From Isoetes taiwanensis (lineage: Eukaryota > Streptophyta > Lycopodiopsida > Isoetales > Isoetaceae): a DNA stretch of 64,000 nt. This document shows, piece by piece, positions 10,355 to 23,480 of this stretch. The notes under the pieces were generated by a model. It did not search any database, was not told the origin of the DNA, and was given only the letters and a program-made list of their open reading frames with translations. The translations under genes were made by a program, and so were the position numbers. The stretch covers positions 15,614,283-15,678,282 of the forward strand of contig JAJEKV010000026.1 in the NCBI GenBank assembly GCA_021234155.1. Reading direction: 5' to 3'. How positions within the stretch are numbered: the first letter of the stretch is position 1; each line of letters starts with the position of its first letter.

Positions 10355-11190
10355 GCTAAGTCCCCAGAGAAAGATTGCCCTGAAAAAACAAAAATGCCAG
10401 TGTATTCCAGAATAAGATTCCCTCTATCATTTGGAACCCAGATCCTGTATCCCTGGTTCCCAAAAAAAAAAAAAAAAAAAAACTCCTTTTATTAATTATA
10501 ACCTTATTCTTGTATCCCCACAAAACAAATAAAAAAAAAAAATCCAAGGTGATTGGAAAATTAAAAATGACCTAGTTGCTGCTTTGTTTTTCCTCTGGCT
10601 CTTCCTGAACAGGATGTGTATTCCAGAATATAAAAATGGTTTGATATTTTTTTTTGTCCGTCTCGTTATTCTGGAATAGCAAGTGTATTCCCGAATACAA
10701 AAAGGGTTTCACATGTTCGAACACAGTATCCTTTTTTCGCTACTATCTCCGCTCTTTAAACAAGAGAAATTTGCTAATTTCTAAGATACACGAAAAACCG
10801 AATATTTGTTAGCCCTTTTGAATCAACAAGCTCTAATCGTTGTTTTTTATGCTCGATCCTTCTCTCATCACTCTTCACGCTTTTGCACATAACTGAGTAT
10901 TTTAAAAATACTGTCAATTTTGCATGTTAATATCAAGATTTTATCTTCAGTTTTTTAATATACTACAATGCCAGTTACTACACTTCTATTTTCGGTTAAA
11001 AGTTTTGTTCTCTTAATATAGGAGTTCTCTCAAAAAACATACTTGGAAAAAATTCTAATTGGTTGAAAAGTGTCACTTTGACACGGTCAATTCTCTCTTC
11101 GCACAAAAAAAAGGCTTTTTTGGGGGTGTCAAAATATAATTTTATGCCTTTTTGATTTTTAACCTCATTTTAGCCCTTTTTTTTTAGAAA
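10355..11190. other. AT-rich spacer with scattered palindrome half-sites
   Basis: No gene is recognised. Homopolymer A runs occur at 10460-10480 and 10531-10541. Words related to the gtattccagaatac palindrome recur at 10398, 10615 and 10665-10705 outside the duplicated segment, so the motif is more widespread than the duplication. Confidence 0.6.
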
Positions 11191-11200
11191 AAATTAATCT

Positions 11201-11881
11201 TTGAGGAATATTCCTTTTGCTCTTGTTTCAGTGATTTGCTCTCGTTTCATACGCAACCTTGTTTTTATAGGAAAAAGGCCTTGCGTAACCTTCTCCATGG
11301 GGTTGGTTGTTGCCAGGGGACATGAATTGCATAGAGGCCACCTGCATGGCAGGAACATTGCATTTAGCAATGTGGTCATGGAGGTCACTAAAGCCATAGT
11401 GCCCTCCCATGTGTTTCCCGTTCCGTGTGCGGGCGCAGATAATATTGCTGAAGCCATGGGGAAATTTATCGAATGGCCACGAAATGACGTGAGAATCTGT
11501 GGAACTGCTTCACCTGTGTCATCTGGAACGTCTGATACTGAAACCCCCGACTTGTCTACTAGTACCTCTACATCATCATCAGACTCGGTATCGATTTCTG
11601 CTCTGGTTCAGACAATAAGCAGCATAGAGAATATGGTGAACCTAGTCAGTGATAATGTTGTGGTTGGTAGAGGTCACTGGCTGAATAGAAGTTGCATCCA
11701 TGGGAAAACTGTTGATGCACTGAACGTAGCAGTGCAAGTTATCGAGGCTATAATGCCTACCCACATCCTTCCGATTGCATGTGCAGGTGCAGACAACGTT
11801 GCAGAGGTTGTGGGCACATTTATCGAATGGCCTCTGCAGGATATAAGATATCATGCCACTGATATAGCTTCAATTAATTGA
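11201..11881 (+). CDS. Protein with two tandem DUF8039-like (transposase-associated) domains
   Basis: The frame is open from 11201; the first ATG is at 11297 (194 aa). Two divergent copies of one domain of about 63 residues are visible: the first begins VVARGHELHRGHLHGRNI and ends IEWPRNDVR, the second begins VVGRGHWLNRSCIHGKTV and ends IEWPLQDIR, each with a central PxHxxPxxCAGADN segment. They are joined by a Ser/Thr-rich linker of about 55 residues. The pattern (V-x-G/A-x-G, HG, valine-rich strand, LPIP-like turn, IGTF-x-EWP) resembles the domain that I believe Pfam calls DUF8039, found in plant proteins linked to DNA transposons. No transposase catalytic part is nearby. It may be a spliced exon, since ttttttttag precedes it, or a relic. 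Family assignment is from memory and needs a profile search. Confidence 0.6.
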   Translation: MRNIPFALVSVICSRFIRNLVFIGKRPCVTFSMGLVVARGHELHRGHLHGRNIAFSNVVMEVTKAIVPSHVFPVPCAGADNIAEAMGKFIEWPRNDVRICGTASPVSSGTSDTETPDLSTSTSTSSSDSVSISALVQTISSIENMVNLVSDNVVVGRGHWLNRSCIHGKTVDALNVAVQVIEAIMPTHILPIACAGADNVAEVVGTFIEWPLQDIRYHATDIASIN

Positions 11882-12520
11882 TACACAGAAACCATATGCG
11901 TTAAACCAAACAATATCAAATTCATGCACCCTGTACACATTCTTGGGCAAATATACAGTTCTGCCATGGGTAGGGTGGTCGAATTGGTGCATCGCAGATG
12001 TCTGCACACAGAAATATAAAATAACTTAACAATTAGATCGACATATAAGGGATCAATGAGAACAAGATTGCGCTTATATAGGCAGTATAAATATATGACC
12101 TAAAGAACAAAGGATGTTGGAAGCTGTGCTCACACTTCAAACAAACTAGTCCAATGGCCACCTAAGGAATAAAGGGACTTCTAAACATCTTTTCTACTTT
12201 TCTACTTTTCTAAATGATATTCATAGCACCTTCCAAAGATGTCCTCCTTCTGCATAAATCAGACTATCCATCAAAAGTTGCATTAAGACTGAAAAATACT
12301 CAATCATGTTTGTCTTCCTCATTCAGCAGAATATCTTGGAAAAAACAACTTACTTTCTGGGCATTGACATTGCTAGAAACAACTATTGTTACTTTAACAC
12401 ATGTCAAGAAATATAAATTCCATTTGAGATCTTCTTGCGATTATCGATAGCTTGCTTTTGTTTTTTTTTTTTTTTTTTTAAATATCAACATGCCTGTCAT
12501 CATGAGTAGCATAAGGAGAG
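11882..12520. other. No gene recognised
   Basis: Ordinary AT-rich sequence ending in a run of more than 20 T (about 12457-12479). Confidence 0.5.
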
Positions 12521-12524
12521 CGGG

Positions 12525-12910
12525 TGAAGATAAAGTTACCTCGGCTTTGGTGATTCTGTCGCGGTGACTACTCTCCCGCAGAATTACTAACCCTCCTGCC
12601 CATTATCCGTACCTGATTGGCCCCGTTATACGTACTTGCCCCGTTATCCGTACCTGACAGGCTCCATTTTATACCTTCCGGCGGAATCACGTTTGCAAAA
12701 TACCGTTGGACGGAATCACCACCCTTTTATTCTACGCGACGGAATCACATAGAATTGATCCTGCTGGGTGGAATCACATACCATAATATTCTACCCCATG
12801 GAATCACCATATACCGTAATATTCTCCCCCATGGAATCACCACGTACGATAATATTCTCCCTCGTGGAATAACCACGCATATATTCCTCGGGAAGGAATC
12901 ACCTCGAGAC
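12525..12910 (+). repeat. Left arm of a long inverted repeat with GGAATCAC subrepeats
   Basis: Begins tgaagataaagttacc and runs through a G/C-richer stretch (ccgttatccgtacc, three copies) into tandem units of about 33 bp each containing ggaatcac (12678-12905). Most of it matches the reverse complement of 22400-22644 in the same order: gataaagttacc, attatccgtacc, ataccttccggcggaatcac, ttggacggaatcac, tctacgcgacggaatcac, aattgatcctgctgggtggaat. The left arm has about four extra ggaatcac units. This may be the terminal inverted repeat of a large element enclosing the CRINKLY4-like pseudogene. Confidence 0.75.
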
Positions 12911-13375
12911 CTTTGAATCTGTAATAACTGCAGGCAAGGAGGAAAAATTGGCAGATGGTTCAATCCCAGCAGAAGTTTATGCCCGATTCCATAAAAAATG
13001 GTTGATAGTTTAAGCGAAACCTAAGTTACTTGAAGATCATGAATGAAATTAATACTAAACCAATGGTCCAATCGGCTACTCGATTTTGTATGTGCATGTC
13101 CATTGTTATGCTCTGCACTGCCCAGAATTTTTCTAGTTGGGGATTTGAATCCCTTGTCAATATCGGCAATGCTATGGCTGCTTTAAAGCAAAAACAAGAA
13201 ACAAGAAACATGCCCGTTTTAAAGCAAAACATGCCAAAAACTGGAAGTTTTAAAGCAAAACATGCCAAAAAATGGAATAGAAACTCCATTTCTTACCGAT
13301 AGCCCAAGCTTTACCTGCACAAGTCTCCTGATGCAGAGATTCTCAGATAGATGCAATGAATCCTCCTAAAAGCAT
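12911..13375. other. Spacer with a small tandem repeat
   Basis: No gene recognised. A word ttttaaagcaaaacatgcc occurs three times in imperfect form between 13184 and 13270. Confidence 0.5.
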
Positions 13376-13881
13376 TTAGGCTGGAATACAACAGGAACTG
13401 CAACTGCAAACGAACGACCTGCCATGTTGCAGATGCCTGACTTCAATCAGATGATCCGGAAAAGGCCATTTCTTACATCCAGCAAATCGAATTGGGGTCT
13501 TATCACCATGGCCAGGGCTGTGTAGAGCAAAAATCCACAGGCTTTGTGCCTTTTTCTTACTATTTTTTGCCCTTATGGTCATCTTTTGGTCTAGCCTTGT
13601 ATGTACACAGGCCTCCTGCAGCAATAGTTGAGAATGGAACATTTTCTGGGTGCTCTGTTTGCTATGAACTATTATCTCCCCAGCAGAATACGTGATGGTT
13701 CTCCTGCAGCAAGCCACAACAATGGCTAAGCCCACATGCTAAAACAGAAAACTTGTCCCCAGAAGGGACGTTAAACTGAGTGAAATCGTTGTTTCCCCAA
13801 CAGAATACTTCTCTGTTGTTCAAAACTATCCCGCAGACATGACGGCGGCCAGCATAGATACTCTCAAACTGTTTATTATTA
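13376..13881 (-). pseudogene. CRINKLY4-like receptor extracellular domain, downstream part
   Basis: The minus strand reads an intact run of crinkly-type repeats from 13881 to about 13663, including IYAGRRHVCGIVLNNREVFC, WGNNDFTQFNVPSGDKFSV and LACGLSHCCGLLQENHHVFC followed by WGDNSS. The repeating A/CG-x-x-H/F-x-CG-[IL]-x(n)-V-x-CWG pattern is that of the seven-bladed CRINKLY4/ACR4 extracellular domain. An in-frame TAG follows WGDNSS; the same frame continues with a further repeat (VPFSTIAAGGLCTY) and then decays. No cysteine-rich, transmembrane or kinase part is present. The upstream half of the same ORF lies at 22056-22380 on the far side of an 8.2-kb transposon. Family role: receptor-like kinase of epidermal cell-fate signalling. 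Confidence 0.78.
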
Positions 13882-13902
13882 AGGGAGGGTGCCCCACTTT
13901 GG
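13882..13902 (+). repeat. Left terminal inverted repeat of the pogo-type element
   Basis: The 21-base inverted repeat starts AGGGAGGGTGCC directly after TA at 13880-13881 and is the exact reverse complement of 22033-22053. Confidence 0.93.
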
Positions 13903-14780
13903 CACACTTAGAAAAGAGCATCCATTTGGAGACCTTTCCCTAACCCAAATGACCTGCTAAAAACATCAACAGATACATTAGAAAGTTAGCTTTAATATGA
14001 TAACAAAAAAATGGAATAAAAATTAGAAACAGATGCTCAATTTTGGCCTTGAAATAGGTAGGTTCATGACCCCTTATGACACAGGGGGGCCTATGATGGC
14101 TCAACAGATTGTGGCACACATGCAACTCGTACATGGTTCATACAGGAACCCTTTTGGCACACCATCTATTCCACTATGGCACACCAACAAACCCGAAATG
14201 GTTCATTGTCTTTTACCTAATGGATCAGTTCCATGAATGTTTCTCCTCACACGAGAACTTAAATGGCAATCAATTTAAACCTGTTTAAGCTGCAGAGGAA
14301 GAAGGAATTGAACCTTCTTAACCAAATGAATTTGGTTGGACCACCAACCCCCACCTGCAATACACCATGCACACAAGATTAGCAAGAGATTGGACTAGAT
14401 TAATAATGGTAGCTATTGCTGCCACTATTAATCAAGTCCATGGAATAATTTGCAAGATATGAGCTAGTTACCTTGATTACAATAGTCCAAACAATATATC
14501 TTCAACTAAATTCAGATCTGAAATTTCAAATAGAAAGCTAGTATTGCATCACAAATGATATACATCCATAAAAGGAGTGCAAGTAGACTTTAAGCCAAAT
14601 TTGCAATCATTGTGCAAGCTACAGCAGAATCATGTGATCCATGCTTGTAAACACCAAATGACCAGCAACCAAGTTGGCTGGCCCCAAAAAGAAATTCTGC
14701 ACAAAGGGTTACATAATTCCAAGTGACATTTGCCTCCAAAAAAATAAAACAAACAACAAATGGCAAAAAGGTGTCATTCC

Positions 14781-15068
14781 CTAAATCCCCAATAGCTTCA
14801 GATGCTCATAGGCCTCAGCCCTATAAACATCATCAAGGCACTTAATCTTTTTGCAAGGTGGCTCAGAATCATCACTGGTAGCCTGATTCTCCAAGTCCAA
14901 GCCATGGCATACATTCATATCAACTTCCCGACCATGGTATCCATCAGGTTCAGACCAGTAGTCTGCTGCCCTCTCTTCCCAAGGGTTATCTCCTTCACAT
15001 GCATCCTTACTTACATTTTTCAGCCTACGTGCATTTCTATGATCCCATGAGTGTGATCCCATGAACAC
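14781..15068 (-). CDS. Small acidic ORF downstream of the pogo transposase
   Basis: A 95-codon ORF starts 43 bp after the transposase stop, on the same strand inside the same element. It is acidic and ends in a Leu-rich tail (YEHLKLLGI). It could be a second ORF of the transposon or a spliced C-terminal exon of the transposase. No known domain is recognised. Confidence 0.35.
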   Translation of the reverse strand: MFMGSHSWDHRNARRLKNVSKDACEGDNPWEERAADYWSEPDGYHGREVDMNVCHGLDLENQATSDDSEPPCKKIKCLDDVYRAEAYEHLKLLGI

Positions 15069-15110
15069 TCATGGGTATCCTCCAAACTGCAAGGGAAGCA
15101 AGTTTCGTCA

Positions 15111-16360
15111 CTAGAGTAATGGTCCATATAAAAATGCAGGATCAGGGATATTAATATGATCGACAACAGGTATATCAGGATTAGTTGCAGCAGCATATTC
15201 TTCTTGTACATTTTCATAATGAAAACCTGTTATGACATTGATAGCAGCAACATTGGTATTCCTTCCCCTAATTTTGGACAATTTTGCTTTGGCCCTTTCC
15301 CTAGCCTTGACTTGCTCAAAATTCAGATCTTTTTTCTCTCCAAATAATTCATGAACAGTAAACCTACACTTACCTGCACCATGGTCTTGAAAGTATGCAG
15401 ATCTGAACCTTGTGCTCCCCTCCTCGTACACTTGATCAGCTTTCTTCCGGGCTGCCTTAGTTGCCTTAGCAGCAGCCTTCTCTAAAGCCTCTAGCTCTTT
15501 GGCCTTCTTTCTAGCAGCCTGCAATGCCTTCTTCTCTTCCATCTTCTCTTGCCTAACCCTGGCAGCTTCTTTGTTGAGTCTATCTTGCTCAATTCTAGCA
15601 GCTATCATCTCATGGGAGGTAACAAACAACCTCCCTTGCAATGCCTCAGGTAGTTTAGACCTTTTGGCCCTTGGCAATGCACCATGTTGTGCATTAGTAT
15701 TCTGCCTAGCAACAGTAGGAGGTGCAATAGGAGGTGAAACAACAGTAGGAGGAGCAGTAGGAGGTGCAACATTAGGTGGAAGTGGATGCTCAATGGGAAC
15801 ATTAATAACATGTTCAGCAAGGTCACATTGTTCTACCAAAGGAGCAGCCAATTCATGCAAGATTTGAGCAGCCAATTCATCATTTTTATTACCTTCTTCT
15901 GCCTCCTCTTCGGAATCAGTAACCACCACATCATTGGCAAGTGGATCAGGAAAGACTGCCCTATCATTGAAAGGCCATATTCCAGTCTTTGCAAAACCTG
16001 CCAAAATATTAGATTGGGTTAAAGATTCACGAATAGCTTGGGAGACAATTGCAGCCAAATCCTCTTTAGAGGGCTCTTTAAGTCTGTTTGTGTGCATGTA
16101 CCTTCCCCTCAATTTCTTGAAGGTAGTTTTGAATGGGGAAAAACAAGCAACGTCAAGTGATTTCAACTTGTGTGATGTATGTGGAGGCAAAAGTAGGATA
16201 TGCAAGCTAATGTCTCTTGCATGTTGAATTGCACTCAATGATACATGAGAGCCATGCCCATCACATATCAATAAATGTGGCTTATCAGGACTAATACCCC
16301 CTGGTACATTCATTGCAAAGTGATCCAGCCATGCATCCCACAAAGGATTAGTTATCCAAG
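15111..16360 (-). pseudogene. Pogo-type transposase, C-terminal half (DDE domain)
   Basis: This half resumes at the nested insertion (ITNPLWDAWLDHFA) and ends FLYGPLL. It carries the second catalytic Asp in LLICDGHGSH and the third in SLDVACFSPFK, the D...D spacing of DDE_1/pogo enzymes. A Lys/Ala/Glu-rich coiled-coil stretch (around EEKKALQAARKKAKELEALE) and a long C-terminal tail follow. The first catalytic Asp is in the N-terminal half at 20518-21403. Joined across the nested element the ORF would be about 711 residues with no stop, so the transposase was intact when interrupted. Confidence 0.92.
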
Positions 16361-16442
16361 AAGTCGTATTTAATTAAAGTGGGACAAATCTCGAATTTTG
16401 GGACTCGGACTGAAAATGGGACAAAATTTTTTTCATTGAATC

Positions 16443-16795
16443 ATTGTTAGATCAGGGGGAGGGGAAGGGTAAGGGGAGAAGCCTGTTGATCAGGGGAAAG
16501 GGAAGGGAAAGGGGAAAGGGAAGGGAAAGGGGAAGGGAAAGGGGAGATGGAAGGGAGGGACTGAGGGAGGGAGGCAAAGGAGCAAGGGAGAGGAAGGAGG
16601 CAGGGGAGAGGTAGGAGAGGCAAGGGATAAGTTGGAAGAAGGGGAAGGGAAGGGGCGGGGCATGGAGGAGGGGAAGGAGGGAGGGGGGGAGGAGAGAGAG
16701 AAGGAGGGAGGGAGGAGGAGGGGGGGGGGAGGGTAGAGAAGAGCAAAGGAGCAAAGGAGGAGAGGGAGGGGCAAAGTGGGGCAAGGTCTCCGCCC
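16443..16795 (+). repeat. 350-bp polypurine tract, GGGAAGGGAAAGG minisatellite
   Basis: Almost pure G/A on the plus strand, made of gggaaggg, ggaggg and gagagg words. Pro/Leu/Ser-rich minus-strand ORFs across it are compositional artefacts. The G-run spacing could support G-quadruplex or triplex structures (inference). Confidence 0.9.
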
Positions 16796-19299
16796 TCCCC
16801 CCAAGTATTAATTATTAATGTATAATTAATAATTAATTAAACTAACTAAATAATTAATTAAATAATAAATTAAATTAATTTAATGACTAAGTTAAATAAT
16901 AATCCTTAACATGGTAGTCACGGATGCATACAATCACAAGCATAGAGCCCAAATACCCAACCAAGCACCACAACTACCTAGGGCCGAAATACAACACAAA
17001 CACACAACACAACTGCCTCCATTCTCGACTCGGTAGTCGAGAATGAAGCATCTTTTCTAAAGCCTGCGCCTAAGCATCCTTTGATACTTCATTAAAACTT
17101 CATTAAATCTTCGCTCAAAACTCTGGTGCAAGGCAACATGATCCTCCTTTCTTCTTTCTTGGCCTGCTCCTATTAACAAGATGCAGCCCATATAAGGCGA
17201 TCAGGAGGACACAACGAAGGCATACATGAGGCGAATACAGGTTGGATCGGACTGGAAAGGGCTGATAAATGACCCAGATAAGATCGGATTTGCAGATGGC
17301 ATAAGCCAGGGGAGCTGCTCGAATCCTGTCCAGATTTGCTCAAACTCTGTTGTAATTGCTCTGTGGTTCTGCCAGCCACAGGAAAATCTCCAGCAAGAAA
17401 CTCTGACGTCAACCAGCCGAAGACCACAAGCTTACATACTGCCGCCGAAAACTGCTTCACACTCTTGTACTGCCGAAAAATCTACGCTGCAAAAAACCTG
17501 GCTTCTATACCTTTTTTTGAATCCTAAATTTGAATTTGTGCTTCTCGTTTGTGCTTCGTCTTGCTTCGTCTTGGTCGATCCCTGCTTTCCCCTTTCATCC
17601 TTTCGTCTTGCAAATATGCTCTTTAGATTCGTCATGATTAGATTCGTCATGCCTGCCCTCTGCGCAGCAAAGATTTTCCAGCCTTATAGGATCAAGGTTG
17701 CAGGATCTTATAGGAGTAGGTCATACCTCAGACGAGGAAGAGAAACAAAGCTTCGGCATCTCCAGCTCAGGCGAAATATGGAGCATCGCCATCGCCGAGC
17801 CCAAGAATAGCTAGAAAATCCTTTGGGCGGTATGTGCTGTAGATCTGCTGCCATTTTTCACCGCCCTACTTCCAAGGTTCTTAGCTATCGTTCTTAGCTA
17901 TCGGCTTCTTGCCATGGCTCTGTAATCTGCAAATAAGCCTGTGAAGAATAATCTGTGAAGAATGATCAGCTATCGAGTTTACAATGGCAACAATCTTTGT
18001 TTAGGATTCAATCTTTCTTACAATGGCAGTGTGCCGGAAATCAAGATCAAGAAAAGGAATGTGTCAGAGTATAGTAGATATAGAACCGGCTATGGCGCCA
18101 TTGGGAAAAGATTTTGGGCTGGTTCTTATGAAGGCAAGAAGTGAGGCAGCTCATCTATCTAGGGAAGCAGAAAAGAGCAAGAAAAATAACGAAGGTATGG
18201 CAAAGAACGGCAATAGGGAGAGAGATTCCCGTAGTAAGGCAGCGGCATGGGCATGTCAGCATGGCGGAGGAGGAGCCGCTACTACAAGCCCAGGGCCAGA
18301 GTACTTGCGAAACAGGGCTTCAATTCCTTGAGTCTAGATTCAAAGCCGAAGCTCAGAAAAGCCATAGCTTCTCCGGCAATCTTTCTGAACCTGGTATTTC
18401 TTGGAATCCTTCTAGTGCCCTAACCTCGGATTTCTGTGCTGAGAAGCCTGTTGATCTGTTTGGGCAGGTCCGACGATTTGGCACCCATTAGTAGCCAGAT
18501 TGTGCAGATTTAAAACCATTTTTCTCCTGAAAATCTTTCCCCTTTTCCGTTTTGATCAGAAAACTTCAGATTTAGATGCCATTTCTTCTCCCGATCAATG
18601 GATGGCTATAGGAGCTTCTCCCGGATGGCTATGGGAGCTTCTTCCCAAAACAAAAGAGTCCAAGTGGTACAAAAGATCTTCGTCTCAAAGGTATGTACCA
18701 AATTTTAAATTTCAAGCATGGGCGGGAAAAAATGGCGGGGTATAGAAAAAAAGCGGGGTAAAAAAATACGTTGAAAAAACAAGTATAAAATAAATGTTAA
18801 TATAATATTTTAATTTGACAATTATACATACACCTCCAATTTCTCTTTTTATGCGTGTGCAGGAGGTGCTTCTACATATTCTATCACTTGGGGCCCTGTG
18901 GGTATTGGAGCAGCTCGGCCAGCCAGCCAGATGATATAGTTTGAATCTTTAGGACATTGTCCTAAATTTCTTCTTTTTTAAAAGGTATGTACTAAATCCC
19001 CCCCCGTCTTCCTTTTTAATTTCAAATTTCGAATTTATCTGAGGCCAATGGATATGGATTTAAATGTTATATATAAATTTGAATGCCATATGTTTTATAT
19101 TATTTTAGATCATATTATATTGTTTAGCTCATCTATTATTAAAATCCCATTTTTTTCAAGCAGATTTGTGCTCCATAATATTAGAGATATTAAAATCCCA
19201 TTAGTCATGATTTGTGCTCCATAATATTGGAGATAGAAACTATGTTTGTAGACAACTAGGTTTGTGACATTTGTTTAATGTTTGATTACATGTTTGAGT

Positions 19300-19760
19300 C
19301 GAGAATGACCCTCAGACTTAAGTTTTTTACTCTAAGCTGCCTTTCTCGACTTGCGAGTCGAGAAAGTTCCTCAGACCTGCCTCTTCCACAGAATTGGCCC
19401 ACAAACCAGCGTTTTTCACTCTGAGTTGCCTTTCTCGACTTGCGAGTCGAGAAAGGCCTTCTGATCCCTAAAAAACCTGCGTTTTTTCGCTTTGAGCTGC
19501 CTTTCTCGACTTCAGAAGTCGAAAGGCCTTCACCCCCTAAACCTGCGTTTACGGCCTTGACGCCTTTCGACTCGCGAAGTCGAAAAGGCTTTCTCGATCA
19601 CTAAAACACCGTTTTTTTTGGTACGCCTTTCTCGACTCGCGAGTCGAAAAAGGCCTTCCTCGACCCCTAAAACTTGTGTTTTTAAACTTTGAGTCGCCTT
19701 TCTCGACTTCATGAAGTCGAGAAAGGCCTTCTCGACTGTGTTTTTCCCTCGGAAATGCCT
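19300..19760. repeat. Tandem array of CTCGACT...AGTCGAG palindromes
   Basis: Six or more units of about 60-110 bp each carry a hairpin of the form cctttctcgact-ngcg-agtcgagaaagg, linked by similar spacers (aaacctgcgtttt, ctttgagctgcc). Stem sequences are strongly conserved while loops differ (tgcg, tcgcg, tcatga, tcaga). A related single palindrome, attctcgactcggtagtcgagaat, occurs at about 17032-17055. Confidence 0.88.
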
Positions 19761-20517
19761 TTCTCATGCCTCATATTTTCCAAAATGGCCCTAAGAACTG
19801 TGTTTTATTTTATTTTTTTGCATGTAGCATCACTTGACTAATTTGATTTTGTCTCTTGCAGGTCCTTATCTCGACCCGGATAGTACATGCTTGGGAGCAA
19901 TGAAAAGATCGGGTTCATTGAAGAAAGGTGCCGAAGAAGGGGTGGTGACATCGATTGGACATACAAGCACGTGGCCCATAAAGGAACTCCTCATACAAAT
20001 TTCTATCGTCTTGCAGTAAGTTGCTCGTGACTAGGAGAGAGCTCCACGCCGCCCTTTGCACTAGGTGGTTCATGTGTGAAGAGGGTGTAATGATTGTGCC
20101 CATACGACCACTATGGTCTCTTCACTCACTGTAATATATATTGTAATGAGCCCATTTATAAATATAAGGTATCTCGAAACTAGTATTTTTGGGTGATTAA
20201 GTAAACGATTTGCATAATTTTTGTTGGAATTTGTGAACTATTGTCTACCCACCTAAGAAAATAGAGCCAAAATGTTCAACTAAGAATCTTTTTCAATTAG
20301 AACTTGATAGGTCTAATGGATGTTTGCGTTGCATTGTTCTTGTTCTCGACACGCTATCCAAGAAAACTGGAAGAAAAGCTTGGATGCACAGTTTCAGACA
20401 AAATTTCGAATTAAGGACAGTTTTCGGGTCGGGGTGCTTCTTTTTGTGTAAATTAACAGGGTTCCGAAAAAAAATGGGAATGGAATGAGTCCCACTTTAA
20501 TTAAATACGACTTCAAG

Positions 20518-21403
20518 CCTTTTTTTGGAAAGCCATAGCTGCCCCTGGCTCGCAACCAGCCATCAAGTCCCTATCCCTTAATCTGGTCCCTTTGAATACA
20601 TATAAACAAGGCATTCTATATCCGGATGCACTCACACATGATAAAACAGTAAGCCATTCTCGACTTTTGGGGATGGTCTCGTGGACATTCCTTATACCTT
20701 TCTTCACTAAAATTCTGATTCCTGTCCTGGCACCAGCTTGCACGCCACTTTCATCACAGTTCCAAATTGTATTTGGCTGGAACTGGAATTTTGCATACAA
20801 TTCCTTTAGGGTAGAGTAGAACTCATTAAGGTTAGTGGAGGACATAGCCTTCACTCTTTGGACCTCTACACACTCAGCAGACCTTAGGCTCAAATCGGGA
20901 TGTCTCTCTTTGAATTTCCTCCACCATATTTTACCAGGCAAGCCATCCTTGAAGCAAGTAATCCTATTAATACACATTTCACTTACCCTTTCCCTTAGCA
21001 ACTCTAGAGTAACGCCTCTTCCCTCCTTAGCCATCTCCATGCACCAATTGACAACATCCTCCTCTTCCTCCTTTGTTAAACCTTTAGGCTTGACACCAAA
21101 TTTCACTTCGGTCTGCCCATTTAGCCACCTTCTAAGAGTAGTCAATGGGATTCCATAATGGGCTGAAGCTTTTCTCATACTAAGGATTCCATTATCTATG
21201 GCATCTATAGCTTCATTCATGGCATCCATGGTCCAACTACCCCTTTCCATTGATCTGATCCTCTTCCCTCCCAATGCATTACTCTCTGATTGGCTATACA
21301 ATAAAGTGGACTTGCCTCTACTATTCGTGACTGGAGGCAATGGAGGATCAGGCAATGGAGGCACAGGATTAGGGACTGGAATCTTTCTACCCCTCAGTTG
21401 CAT
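20518..21403 (-). pseudogene. Pogo-type transposase, N-terminal half
   Basis: Starts at the ATG giving MQLRGRKIPVPN. After a Pro-rich leader come an HTH of psq type (WTMDAMNEAIDAIDNGILS through LTTLRRWLNG, residues about 57-95) and a CENP-B-like second HTH (LTKEEEEDVVNWCMEMAKEG, about 108-165). The DDE domain begins with the first catalytic Asp in TIWNCDESGV (about residue 220) and continues through VLSCVSASGYRMPCLYVFKG. The frame runs into the nested element at FQKKA and stops there; the original frame continues at 16356 as WITNPLWDAW. The protein would bind the element's termini and catalyse cut-and-paste transposition. Confidence 0.92.
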
Positions 21404-22032
21404 TGCAATGGCAGCAGGTAGGAAATGATCTTGAATGCTTTTTCAAGAAAAGCCTGGAAGGAACAGATACAGGGTAATTGGCTTGATTGATAGAACTGAG
21501 CAAGAGAATGCAATTGCTTGCCCTCTTATGTGCACAATTGGAGGGAATACACATTACCTTGGCGGGAATCAAAGAAGCCAGCAAAGAATCGATTTGCAAT
21601 TGGAAGAGCATGTCCCGTGCAAGTAAATGGCGCCAAAAAGAAGATGTTTCTGGAAAAATATGGGCAAAAAGATCTTCAGATCTGCATGATTTTGCCGCCA
21701 ATCTTAGAAGAGCTTACATGCAAAAAGGGCAAAAAGTTACCAGTAATATCTCTTCCAAATCTCCCAGCCACGAGCCAAATGTAGGTCAAATGCTGTGCCA
21801 GATAGGTCTTCGTTTGTGTGGCTGCAGTCCTTGTGTGATCCATGGAGGAGGCCATGCCGAATACAAAGGGATTGATGCTGTGCCGTCCACCCTAAGAAAA
21901 GGGACCGTGGAAGAACAAAACCTAATCCATTATGGTAATGCCTTTTGTGCCTATTAGGTAATAGAGGAGTGCCAAAAGAGGCACACCTGGGCCACAGTCG
22001 TCCCCATGTGGCGTCAAAAAAGGGGCCCTATT

Positions 22033-22053
22033 CCAAAGTGGGGCACCCTCCCT
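22033..22053 (-). repeat. Right terminal inverted repeat of the pogo-type element
   Basis: Exact reverse complement of 13882-13902, followed by the TA target duplication at 22054-22055. Confidence 0.93.
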
Positions 22054-22055
22054 TA

Positions 22056-22380
22056 GGTGGAGCTTCAGACAACTGATCCCAACAAACTGCATTGTGGTTG
22101 CTTTGAAGCAACCCACATGTGAAATTTTCGCCTGCGGTGACAGAAATCATGGCCTGCTGTGGAGGAGAACAAGTGAAAAAAATGGTAGCCAAATATGGTT
22201 ATTGCCGTTGTATGTGCTTTTCCTCCAGGCGATTCCTCTGGCGTGTCCAGGGTCTTTTACCTCTGGCCCAATGCACATGCCGAACCCCAGCCTGTCCTAA
22301 TGCCATCTATGGATGGAGCAAGCCCTCCTTACTTCCGCCATAGCCGCAGCAGCTGCAAAACCTCCCGAAGAACATGACGT
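22056..22380 (-). pseudogene. CRINKLY4-like receptor extracellular domain, upstream part
   Basis: The minus strand reads AMISVTAGENFTCGLLQSN and then NAVCWDQLSEAPP, one crinkly-type repeat, and continues in frame into 13881 once the pogo-type element is removed. Upstream of about 22200 the frame meets a TAA and further crinkly sequence is not readable, so the gene was truncated or decayed before or after the transposon arrived. The fragment stops at the right arm of the long inverted repeat (22385 onward), as expected if a larger element had captured it. Confidence 0.75.
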
Positions 22381-22384
22381 AAAT

Positions 22385-22644
22385 GTAACAAATTTGAATT
22401 TTTACTGGGGATATTCCACCAGGCAGAATCAATTCCGGATGGTGATTTCGTCGCGTGGAATAAAAGTGGAATAAAAGGGCCGTGATTCCGTCCGGCGGGA
22501 TTTGGTGGCTGTGATTCCGCTGGAAGGTATTAAACGAAGGTGTCAAGGTATGGATAATGGGGCCTCCAGAATGGACCCCGTTCCAGGCACGGGAGAGAAT
22601 TTTCTATGATGGAATCACCATAAGTGGGGTAACTTTATCTTCAT
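22385..22644 (-). repeat. Right arm of the long inverted repeat
   Basis: Reverse complement of much of 12525-12790: outer edge ggtaactttatcttca (22629-22644), then the variants of the gtgattcc (ggaatcac) motif in the reverse order. Identity is clearly imperfect, so the arms are old or evolved separately. No convincing target duplication is visible outside the two arms. Confidence 0.72.
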
Positions 22645-22789
22645 CGAGGAAGGAGTTGGCATGCAGCATTTTCACGAGAACTCTGCATCGTGTCTTTGAC
22701 TCTCCTCTCACCGTGTCTTTTGTTTTTCGAAGTTAGTTTTTTGCTTTGGAAGATGATGGATCCCATGGAGACGAATTACCACACGGGCA

Positions 22790-23480
22790 ACTAATAAAAT
22801 TAGTAAGCTCACCAAATGAGTAGGTCATAGCATGCATGTTAAGTCCAAAAGAGATCCATGGCTCGGTCGGATAGACACAAACCAGTGCCATCCCTCATTT
22901 ACAAAGCCAGCATGGCTACATGCATATTGAATCTGAATAAATATCACATCGTTTGGCAGAAATCCTGCTTAACACATTTGTTCATATGCCTGAATGGCAT
23001 TTTCAGCATGGAAATGCTGGGCACATACTAAAATCATTGCATTATATGATATGAATTTGAGCAGATTATAAAATGCCCTCTCTGCATCTTCTAGTCCCCC
23101 AAACTTAACATACATATTGAGAATGGCAGTTCCTACAACCACATCTTTATGCAAACCACTAGCTATTATCTGTGCATGTACCTGTTTTCCTTGCGTTATT
23201 GCTGTCTGGCTAAGTAATGCATTCAAAATACTGACAAAGGTTAGCATTGAGCCTTCATGCTGCATCTGTTGAAAGAGTTTACGGGCTTCACATGTCCAAG
23301 AAGAACATATGCAGCAATCATGGAATTCCAAGAATCAAGATCCTGAAAATTTTCTCAAAAGCATTGCAAGCATCTGCAGCAGTTCCACAGCTGCCATACA
23401 TGCTGATTAACACCACATTAAAACCAAACCCACTCATTATTATATGCGCATGCATCCACTTGTAATACAATCTTCCAACT
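22790..23480 (-). pseudogene. PLS-type PPR pseudogene
   Basis: The minus strand shows PPR motifs in order with frame changes: NVVLISMYGSCGTAADACNA near 23400, LDSWNSMIAAYVLLGHVK near 23320, ARKLFQQMQHEGSMLTFVSI near 23270, VHAQIIASGLHKDVVVGTAI near 23160, NAIQAYEQMC near 22990, an in-frame TAA, then LPNDVIFIQIQYACSHAGFV near 22920. At least two frameshifts and one nonsense codon make it non-functional. PPR proteins normally act in organelle RNA editing and processing. Confidence 0.8.

What the first reader, a model, noticed from the sequence alone, without database searches (positions are those of the whole stretch)
12525..22644. Nested transposons in which each removal restores the frame beneath
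A CRINKLY4-like ORF is split by a pogo-type element (TA duplication, 21-bp inverted ends) whose transposase is itself split by a second element (CAAG duplication, 25-bp inverted ends). Deleting the inner element rejoins QKK to AWITNPLWDAW; deleting the outer one rejoins SEAPP to NNKQFES. Two independent in-frame restorations fix all four boundaries to the base. The pogo transposase was an intact ORF of about 711 codons when it was hit, so the inner element moved recently relative to the outer one.
Basis: seen in the sequence. Interest (0 to 1): 0.85.

Follow-up and report, generated by a model that had tools for sequence, protein, structure and literature searches.

The report
Three nested transposons, two carrying genes
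A stretch of plant DNA holds three jumping genes, one inside another, confirmed by uninterrupted copies elsewhere in the same genome; the nest itself is ordinary, but the innermost belongs to a large, little-described family that picks up pieces of host genes.

Summary
The pogo element has perfect 21-bp inverted ends and a TA duplication; the inner element has perfect 25-bp ends and CAAG. Removing the inserts gives a 724-residue frame with HTH_psq, Tc5-type HTH and DDE_1, and a 120-residue CRINKLY4-ectodomain-like frame. The host genome (1.66 Gb; size fits Isoetes taiwanensis) holds the predicted uninterrupted sites: 3 loci for the outer junction and 38 of 40 listed matches for the inner one.

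(2) The 711-codon transposase frame is C-terminally truncated by a private 23-bp deletion. (3) Frame restoration fixes boundaries only modulo 3.

More interesting: the inner element belongs to a high-copy family (16 of 20 fetched copies have both ends and matching 4-bp duplications) whose interiors vary. Some copies hold a chalcone-synthase exon piece, 98% identical to a host gene. In five loci a DUF7869 coding stretch lies at the same spacing inside the same end; it is probably the transposase. This looks like gene capture by a Sola-like superfamily, which I did not find reported.

The parts
12522..22646 (.). Outermost layer: MULE-type non-autonomous element (about 1.95 kb once the pogo nest is removed; ends within about 3 bases) with diverged inverted ends, carrying the CRINKLY4-like fragment
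   Evidence: Inverted repeats 12525-12578/22590-22643 (74%) and 12638-12735/22466-22563 (76%); end-to-end local score 71 against at most 21 in 200 single-base shuffles; independent insertion L030 has homology that stops at these ends and a 9-bp direct repeat
12513..12521 (+). Probable left 9-bp target duplication of the outermost element (AAGGAGAGC)
   Evidence: Right-hand copy partly lost in the window; paralogue L029 keeps it as GCTCTTCCT/GCTCTCCTT, 7 of 9 (read from the alignments)
22056..22199 (-). CRINKLY4-like fragment, first part (coding order)
   Evidence: outer coordinate derived from the frame length
13666..13881 (-). CRINKLY4-like fragment, second part; ends at a stop where L029 and L031 have a glutamine
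   Evidence: outer coordinate derived from the frame length
13882..22053 (-). Middle layer: pogo-superfamily element (4015 bp without the inner insert), TA duplication, 21-bp ends
   Evidence: uninterrupted site in L029, L030, L031
20514..21403 (-). Pogo transposase residues 1-295: HTH_psq, HTH_Tnp_Tc5, first catalytic Asp (D217); includes one CAAG copy
15108..16360 (-). Pogo transposase residues 296-711 with D329 and D365 (D35D) and stop; private 23-bp deletion near 15125 truncates the C-terminus
16361..20513 (.). Innermost layer: 4153-bp element, perfect 25-bp ends, CAAG duplication, member of a high-copy gene-capturing family
16357..16360 (+). CAAG target duplication, left copy
20514..20517 (+). 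CAAG target duplication, right copy
17096..18622 (+). Interior of the inner element not shared with the 16 other two-ended copies: a mosaic whose segments match separate places in the genome at about 94-97% (17186-17334, 17432-17758, 18003-18419, 18431-18864)
   Evidence: two more distant copies (C908 95%, C1028 93%) share most of the mosaic
19297..19732 (+). Subterminal array of palindromes built on CTCGACT..AGTCGAG, shared with the coding copies of the family

Best explanation
A three-layer nest of DNA transposons in a lycophyte-like plant genome. First, a MULE-type element that had captured a piece of a CRINKLY4-like gene landed here. The surrounding block was later duplicated (copy on contig C911). 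A pogo-superfamily element then jumped into the captured piece in the window copy. Finally a member of a 4-bp-duplication family jumped into the pogo transposase gene between the first and second catalytic aspartates and so disrupted it. Each step is cut-and-paste insertion with target duplication, so the sequence underneath is kept exactly. That is why each removal restores the frame beneath. The innermost family is non-autonomous and Pack-type: conserved ends, interiors replaced by pieces of host sequence. It is most likely moved by a DUF7869 protein encoded by long relatives with the same end. Shown: ends, duplications, uninterrupted paralogues, layer order, one captured exon piece with a matching host gene, fixed DUF7869-to-end spacing in five loci. 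Inferred: that DUF7869 is the transposase, that the family is Sola-like, that the outermost family is moved by a MULE transposase.
For: Ends and duplications. Three uninterrupted sites for the outer junction at 97, 91 and 90%. L029 shares flanks on both sides of the outermost element (window 10399-13881 and, with gaps, 22053-23205; K2P 0.036 over the larger block), so it is the same locus without pogo. For the inner junction, 38 of 40 matches listed run across it uninterrupted, 11 of them over query 1-598 to 1-600, best 98%; the other two are the window's own halves. L030 is an independent insertion of the outermost element with its own 9-bp repeat. Window pogo against the C1094 copy, which has both perfect ends and TA: K2P 0.016. 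Inner family: 17 of 20 fetched copies have both 25-bp ends, 16 of those 17 with identical 4-bp flanks.
Against: The outermost duplication is imperfect (7 of 9 in L029; one side partly deleted in the window), and L030 has a doubled left end, so its exact repeat has a choice of partner. No MULE transposase was sought. An uncollapsed allele rather than a duplicate is not strictly excluded for C911, though homology ends on both sides inside the 15 kb fetched. The right end of the DUF7869-coding copy was not found within 21 kb. The closest relative of the inner element fetched is about 92% identical over 3.3 kb, so the insertion is not demonstrably recent in absolute terms.
Confidence: 0.92

Rival explanations
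1. One reading: a host CRINKLY4 gene was disrupted by pogo, which was disrupted by a second element; only two layers.
For: The joined piece reads 120 codons and matches the ACR4 ectodomain.
Against: Inverted ends at 12525 and 22643 enclose the piece; an independent insertion L030 carries the same ends and piece with its own 9-bp repeat; the recognisable coding part is only 120 codons, and all four copies examined have a stop or frameshift.
Confidence: 0.05
2. The inner family is not Sola-like but another superfamily with 4-bp duplications (Ginger-type or undescribed), and DUF7869 elements merely lie near the same ends.
For: No Sola reference sequence was available; the right end of the coding copy was not found in 21 kb; the DUF7869 regions of L018 and L028 are split over several frames.
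Against: Ginger ends are 40-270 bp and start TG..CA (PMC10741241 passages), whereas these are 25 bp and start AAGT. In 5 loci the DUF7869 match lies about 1.08-1.83 kb inside the same end, always oriented towards it. Homology between two coding copies starts at the first base of the end.
Confidence: 0.3
3. Assembly artefact or chimera joining unrelated sequences.
For: None found; the assembly appears to be the Nanopore-based one of PMC8566536 (passages).
Against: Base-exact inverted ends and duplications at both levels, with matching paralogues.
Confidence: 0.01

Closest known systems
pogo superfamily (IS630-Tc1-mariner group; Lemi in eudicots, clade 38 in Selaginella)
   Same: TA duplication, ends of at most 40 bp, HTH_psq/CENP-B-type DNA-binding domains, DDE_1, D35D spacing (PMC7386202 and PMC7325037 passages)
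   Different: Host is a lycophyte-like genome; in the passages seen, PMC7386202 reports land-plant pogo only from 23 eudicots and PMC7325037 two Selaginella sequences. No tree was built, so the family within pogo is unassigned.
Pack-MULE elements
   Same: Long inverted ends, 9-bp repeat in L030, captured host-gene fragment
   Different: Ends only about 75% alike; window duplication partly lost; no MULE transposase looked for; parent gene not identified
Pack-TYPE elements of CACTA, hAT, PIF and Mariner (PMC8903248 passages)
   Same: Conserved ends, captured genic interior, non-autonomous
   Different: 4-bp duplications and DUF7869-linked ends, not one of the superfamilies named there
Sola superfamily
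   Same: 4-bp duplications, end length within 11-1124 bp, long coding elements, known from the moss Physcomitrella (PMC10741241 and PMC9033089 passages)
   Different: No sequence comparison with a Sola transposase could be made; gene capture by Sola was not found in the searches named in the report

Membership tests
pogo superfamily | TA target duplication | tested here: met
   window and C1094 copy
pogo superfamily | HTH_psq / CENP-B-type plus DDE_1 transposase | tested here: met
   all on the joined frame; the two HTH on the first half, DDE_1 on the second
pogo superfamily | DDxD catalytic triad | tested here: met
   D217, D329, D365, 35 residues between the last two; residues picked by motif from recall, not by structure
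pogo superfamily | Placement in a pogo phylogeny | not tested
   no tree built
Pack-MULE | Long terminal inverted repeats | tested here: met
   two blocks within about 210 bp of each end, 74-76%
Pack-MULE | 9-bp target duplication | tested here: inconclusive
   exact 9-mer in L030, 7 of 9 in L029, partly deleted in the window
Pack-MULE | Captured fragment of a host gene | tested here: met
   CRINKLY4-ectodomain match; three other copies; intact parent gene not identified
Pack-MULE | Mobilised by a MULE transposase | not tested
   no search made
Pack-type (gene-capturing) element, inner family | Conserved ends with exchanged interiors | tested here: met
   17 elements compared, the window copy and 16 others
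Pack-type (gene-capturing) element, inner family | Captured host exon with a parent gene elsewhere | tested here: met
   547 bp of chalcone synthase in L026, 98.0% to L051, a gene with no such ends in 3.1 kb; shown for L026, not for the window copy
Sola | 4-bp target duplication | tested here: met
   16 of 17 two-ended copies (of 20 fetched) plus the window copy
Sola | DDD transposase homologous to Sola transposases | not testable with these tools
   coding copies carry DUF7869; no Sola reference sequence available; no PDB relative
Ginger | 5'-TG...CA-3' ends of 40-270 bp and integrase-type transposase | tested here: not met
   ends are 25 bp starting AAGT; DUF7869 was the only Pfam family above its cut-off in the 10 ORFs scanned

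The most novel reading that the evidence does not exclude
DUF7869 is the catalytic domain of a Sola-like transposase, and in this lycophyte genome its non-autonomous relatives form a large gene-capturing (Pack-type) population that copies and shuffles host exons. That would be gene capture by a superfamily for which I found no report, and a function for a domain of unknown function.
Probability: 0.5. Interest if true: 0.65.

Novelty: new variant of a known kind. Interest (0 to 1): 0.5.

Why it matters
The nest is a base-resolved relative chronology with paralogous controls for both junctions. More widely, two different gene-capturing families sit in one nest in a seed-free plant. If the 4-bp family and DUF7869 belong together, gene capture extends to a superfamily outside MULE, CACTA, hAT, PIF, Mariner and Helitron, and captured exons may inflate gene counts. 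The published I. taiwanensis repeat library dropped repeats with plant-protein homology (PMC8566536 passages), which would tend to hide such elements.

Tried and rejected
Rfam scan of the window at gathering threshold: 0 families. PDB sequence search with the joined pogo transposase: nothing meaningful (best E 0.1); with the DUF7869 ORF of L028: nothing meaningful (best 0.64). Pfam on interior ORFs of the inner family: of 20 ORFs gave a family over its cut-off (L026 and L021 chalcone synthase, L013 LRR_6); the 5 window interior ORFs among them gave none. Of 6 ORFs from places that match window segments, none gave a family over its cut-off. The idea that the C911 block is a fourth mobile layer was rejected: no inverted ends at 10399/23205. 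Recent movement of the CHS-bearing element judged from C189 is not established: the 630-base CHS stretch is identical, but the elements as a whole are 93-98% alike. Structure prediction was not used: by its stated rule the tool takes window proteins and loci from certain other tools, so the DUF7869 protein and the joined transposase did not qualify. DUF7869 in print: 0 papers in the held library. One search (Sola with 4-bp TSD and Physcomitrella) gave 0, but it was badly posed: one of its terms could not match as a whole word.
Full report
Setting. The window lies in a 1,658,258,908-base genome of 1110 contigs. This fits the published Isoetes taiwanensis assembly: 1658.30 Mb, 204 scaffolds plus 909 contigs (PMC8566536, passages). 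The species is an inference from size.

Observation. Both elements are as described. Pogo: perfect 21-bp inverted ends at 13882 and 22053 with a TA duplication. Inner element: perfect 25-bp ends at 16361 and 20513 with CAAG. Removal joins QKK to AWITN in a 724-codon frame (711 from the first ATG), and SEAPP to NNKQFES in a 120-codon frame. Sliding the deletion points from -4 to +4 keeps the long frames only at multiples of three, so frame alone fixes boundaries modulo 3. The joined transposase has HTH_psq, HTH_Tnp_Tc5 and DDE_1, and D217, D329, D365 (D35D). The inner element sits after residue 295, between the first and second aspartate.

Uninterrupted sites. The joined outer junction is found uninterrupted at three places: C911 97%, C778 91%, C1028 90%. 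C911 (L029) also matches the window on both sides of the outermost element: 10399-13881 and, with gaps, 22053-23205; K2P 0.036 over the larger block and 0.020 over 22844-23205. It is therefore the same locus, duplicated, without pogo. For the inner junction, 38 of the 40 matches listed (228 first-look candidates) run across it uninterrupted, 11 of them over the whole query or all but two bases, the best at 98%; the remaining two rows are the window's own halves. The C1094 copy has both perfect pogo ends, TA on both sides and K2P 0.016 to the window copy. A second copy fetched, C1069, shows the first end only and K2P 0.036.

Third layer. The end-to-end alignment score is 71 against at most 21 in 200 single-base shuffles. 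C1028 (L030) is an independent insertion: its homology stops at these ends, and it has a 9-bp direct repeat, though its left end is doubled. L029 keeps a 7-of-9 duplication; the window has lost part of one side. The CRINKLY4 piece is thus cargo of a MULE-type element. It matches the solved ectodomains 7a0k and 7a0j, but each of the four copies examined has a stop or frameshift, and the window frame ends at a stop where L029 and L031 have a glutamine codon. L031 shows no element ends in the 1.3 kb fetched; the intact parent gene was not found.

The transposase was not demonstrably intact. Of six relatives examined around codon 711, four (L032, L040, L041, L044) keep, with substitutions, a 23-bp stretch missing from the window, L043 has a deletion of its own, and L042 did not align. 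In the C1094 copy the frame continues to ...HLKLLGI; in the window it stops early. The C1094 copy has other breaks upstream, so no intact full-length copy was shown.

The inner family. Of 20 copies fetched from 40 scored matches (1386 first-look candidates), 17 have both perfect ends and 16 of these have identical 4-bp flanks. One (L009) has differing flanks, and three (L010, L015, L028) have no second end within the fetched stretch. Lengths of the 16 are 3.4-6.4 kb. Roughly the first 121 and last 193 bases are shared widely; interiors are shared with only some of the others, and 4 of the 17 compared have stretches found in no other (window 1660 bp, L016 2522, L024 1012, L011 370). Three of 20 interior ORFs scanned gave a Pfam family over its cut-off: chalcone synthase in L026 and L021, LRR_6 in L013. 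The chalcone synthase piece is 547 bp, 11 mismatches from a C1029 gene whose main exon gives both chalcone synthase domains and which has no such ends within 3.1 kb; a second, upstream exon is likely by eye. The first 46 bases of that query are element sequence, found in 9 further places of which two are fetched element copies (L022, L027); they overlap the gene match by 8 bases. The window copy's own interior (17096-18622) is a mosaic: separate segments match separate places at about 94-97%, and two further copies (C908, C1028) share most of the mosaic at 95 and 93%. At least one of those places (C949) is another element copy rather than a donor, and no window segment was assigned to a named gene.

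Probable mobiliser. At least two of the 20 fetched loci (L028, and a second end in L018) have ORFs with DUF7869 (3.7e-40, 2.2e-38). Their homology starts at the first base of the shared end, 94% over 3.2 kb. Comparing the lists by eye, the DUF7869 match lies about 1.08-1.83 kb inside the end, in the same orientation, in 4 of the 40 scored ends (C1100, C1082, C279, C426), plus the second end in L018. This is a lower bound: only 150 of 12121 candidates were scored. The coding copies share the palindromes of the small ones. DUF7869 has 9902 first-look candidates here; all 150 scored exceed the cut-off, and 0 of 14 control genomes ring. The right end of the coding copy was not found in 21 kb, so a complete autonomous element is not shown. 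Another copy (C1082) is homologous as far as about 10.2 kb from the end.

Known or new. Nested transposons and Pack-type capture are known. Pack-TYPE elements are reported for MULE, CACTA, hAT, PIF and Mariner (PMC8903248, passages). Sola has 4-bp duplications and a DDD transposase, is present in a moss and seems uncommon in flowering plants (PMC10741241, passages). A 2026 review of gene capture in plants has no occurrence of Sola in its main text (PMC13317346, find). DUF7869 gave no paper. Two searches combining Sola with gene capture showed no such report among the titles listed (15 of 145, 10 of 96; listings only). The I. sinensis paper has no occurrence of Sola, MULE or DNA transposon in its main text (PMC10541799, find).

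Verdict. The finding is real and well supported, ordinary in kind as a nest, but with three layers, not two. The more notable part is the innermost family: gene capture with 4-bp duplications, linked to a DUF7869 protein.

Noticed in passing
window 10399-23205: The nest sits in a block whose other copy is on contig C911 (K2P 0.036), with no inverted ends at the block's edges; the mechanism of duplication is open.
   Followed up: partly
window 22969-23334 (- strand): PPR-like fragment right beside the outermost element; the C911 homology ends inside it.
   Followed up: partly
window 11198-11881 (+ strand): 227-residue frame with two diverged copies of one motif (..CAGADN.AE..G.FIEWP..D.R.) and no Pfam match.
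   Followed up: partly
L018 4425-4501: Two inner-family ends lie 27 bp apart, a geometry that could favour capture by joint excision.
   Followed up: no
L016 504-6861: A 6.36-kb inner-family copy holds a third, internal inverted end, suggesting nesting or fusion inside the family.
   Followed up: no
G000 genome-wide: DUF7869 is amplified: 150 of 150 scored matches over cut-off, 9902 first-look candidates, none in 14 control genomes.
   Followed up: partly
window 12683-12902 and 22482-22618: GGAATCAC (either strand) occurs 7 and 3 times near the two ends of the outermost element, mostly about every 30 bases, a possible transposase-binding array.
   Followed up: no
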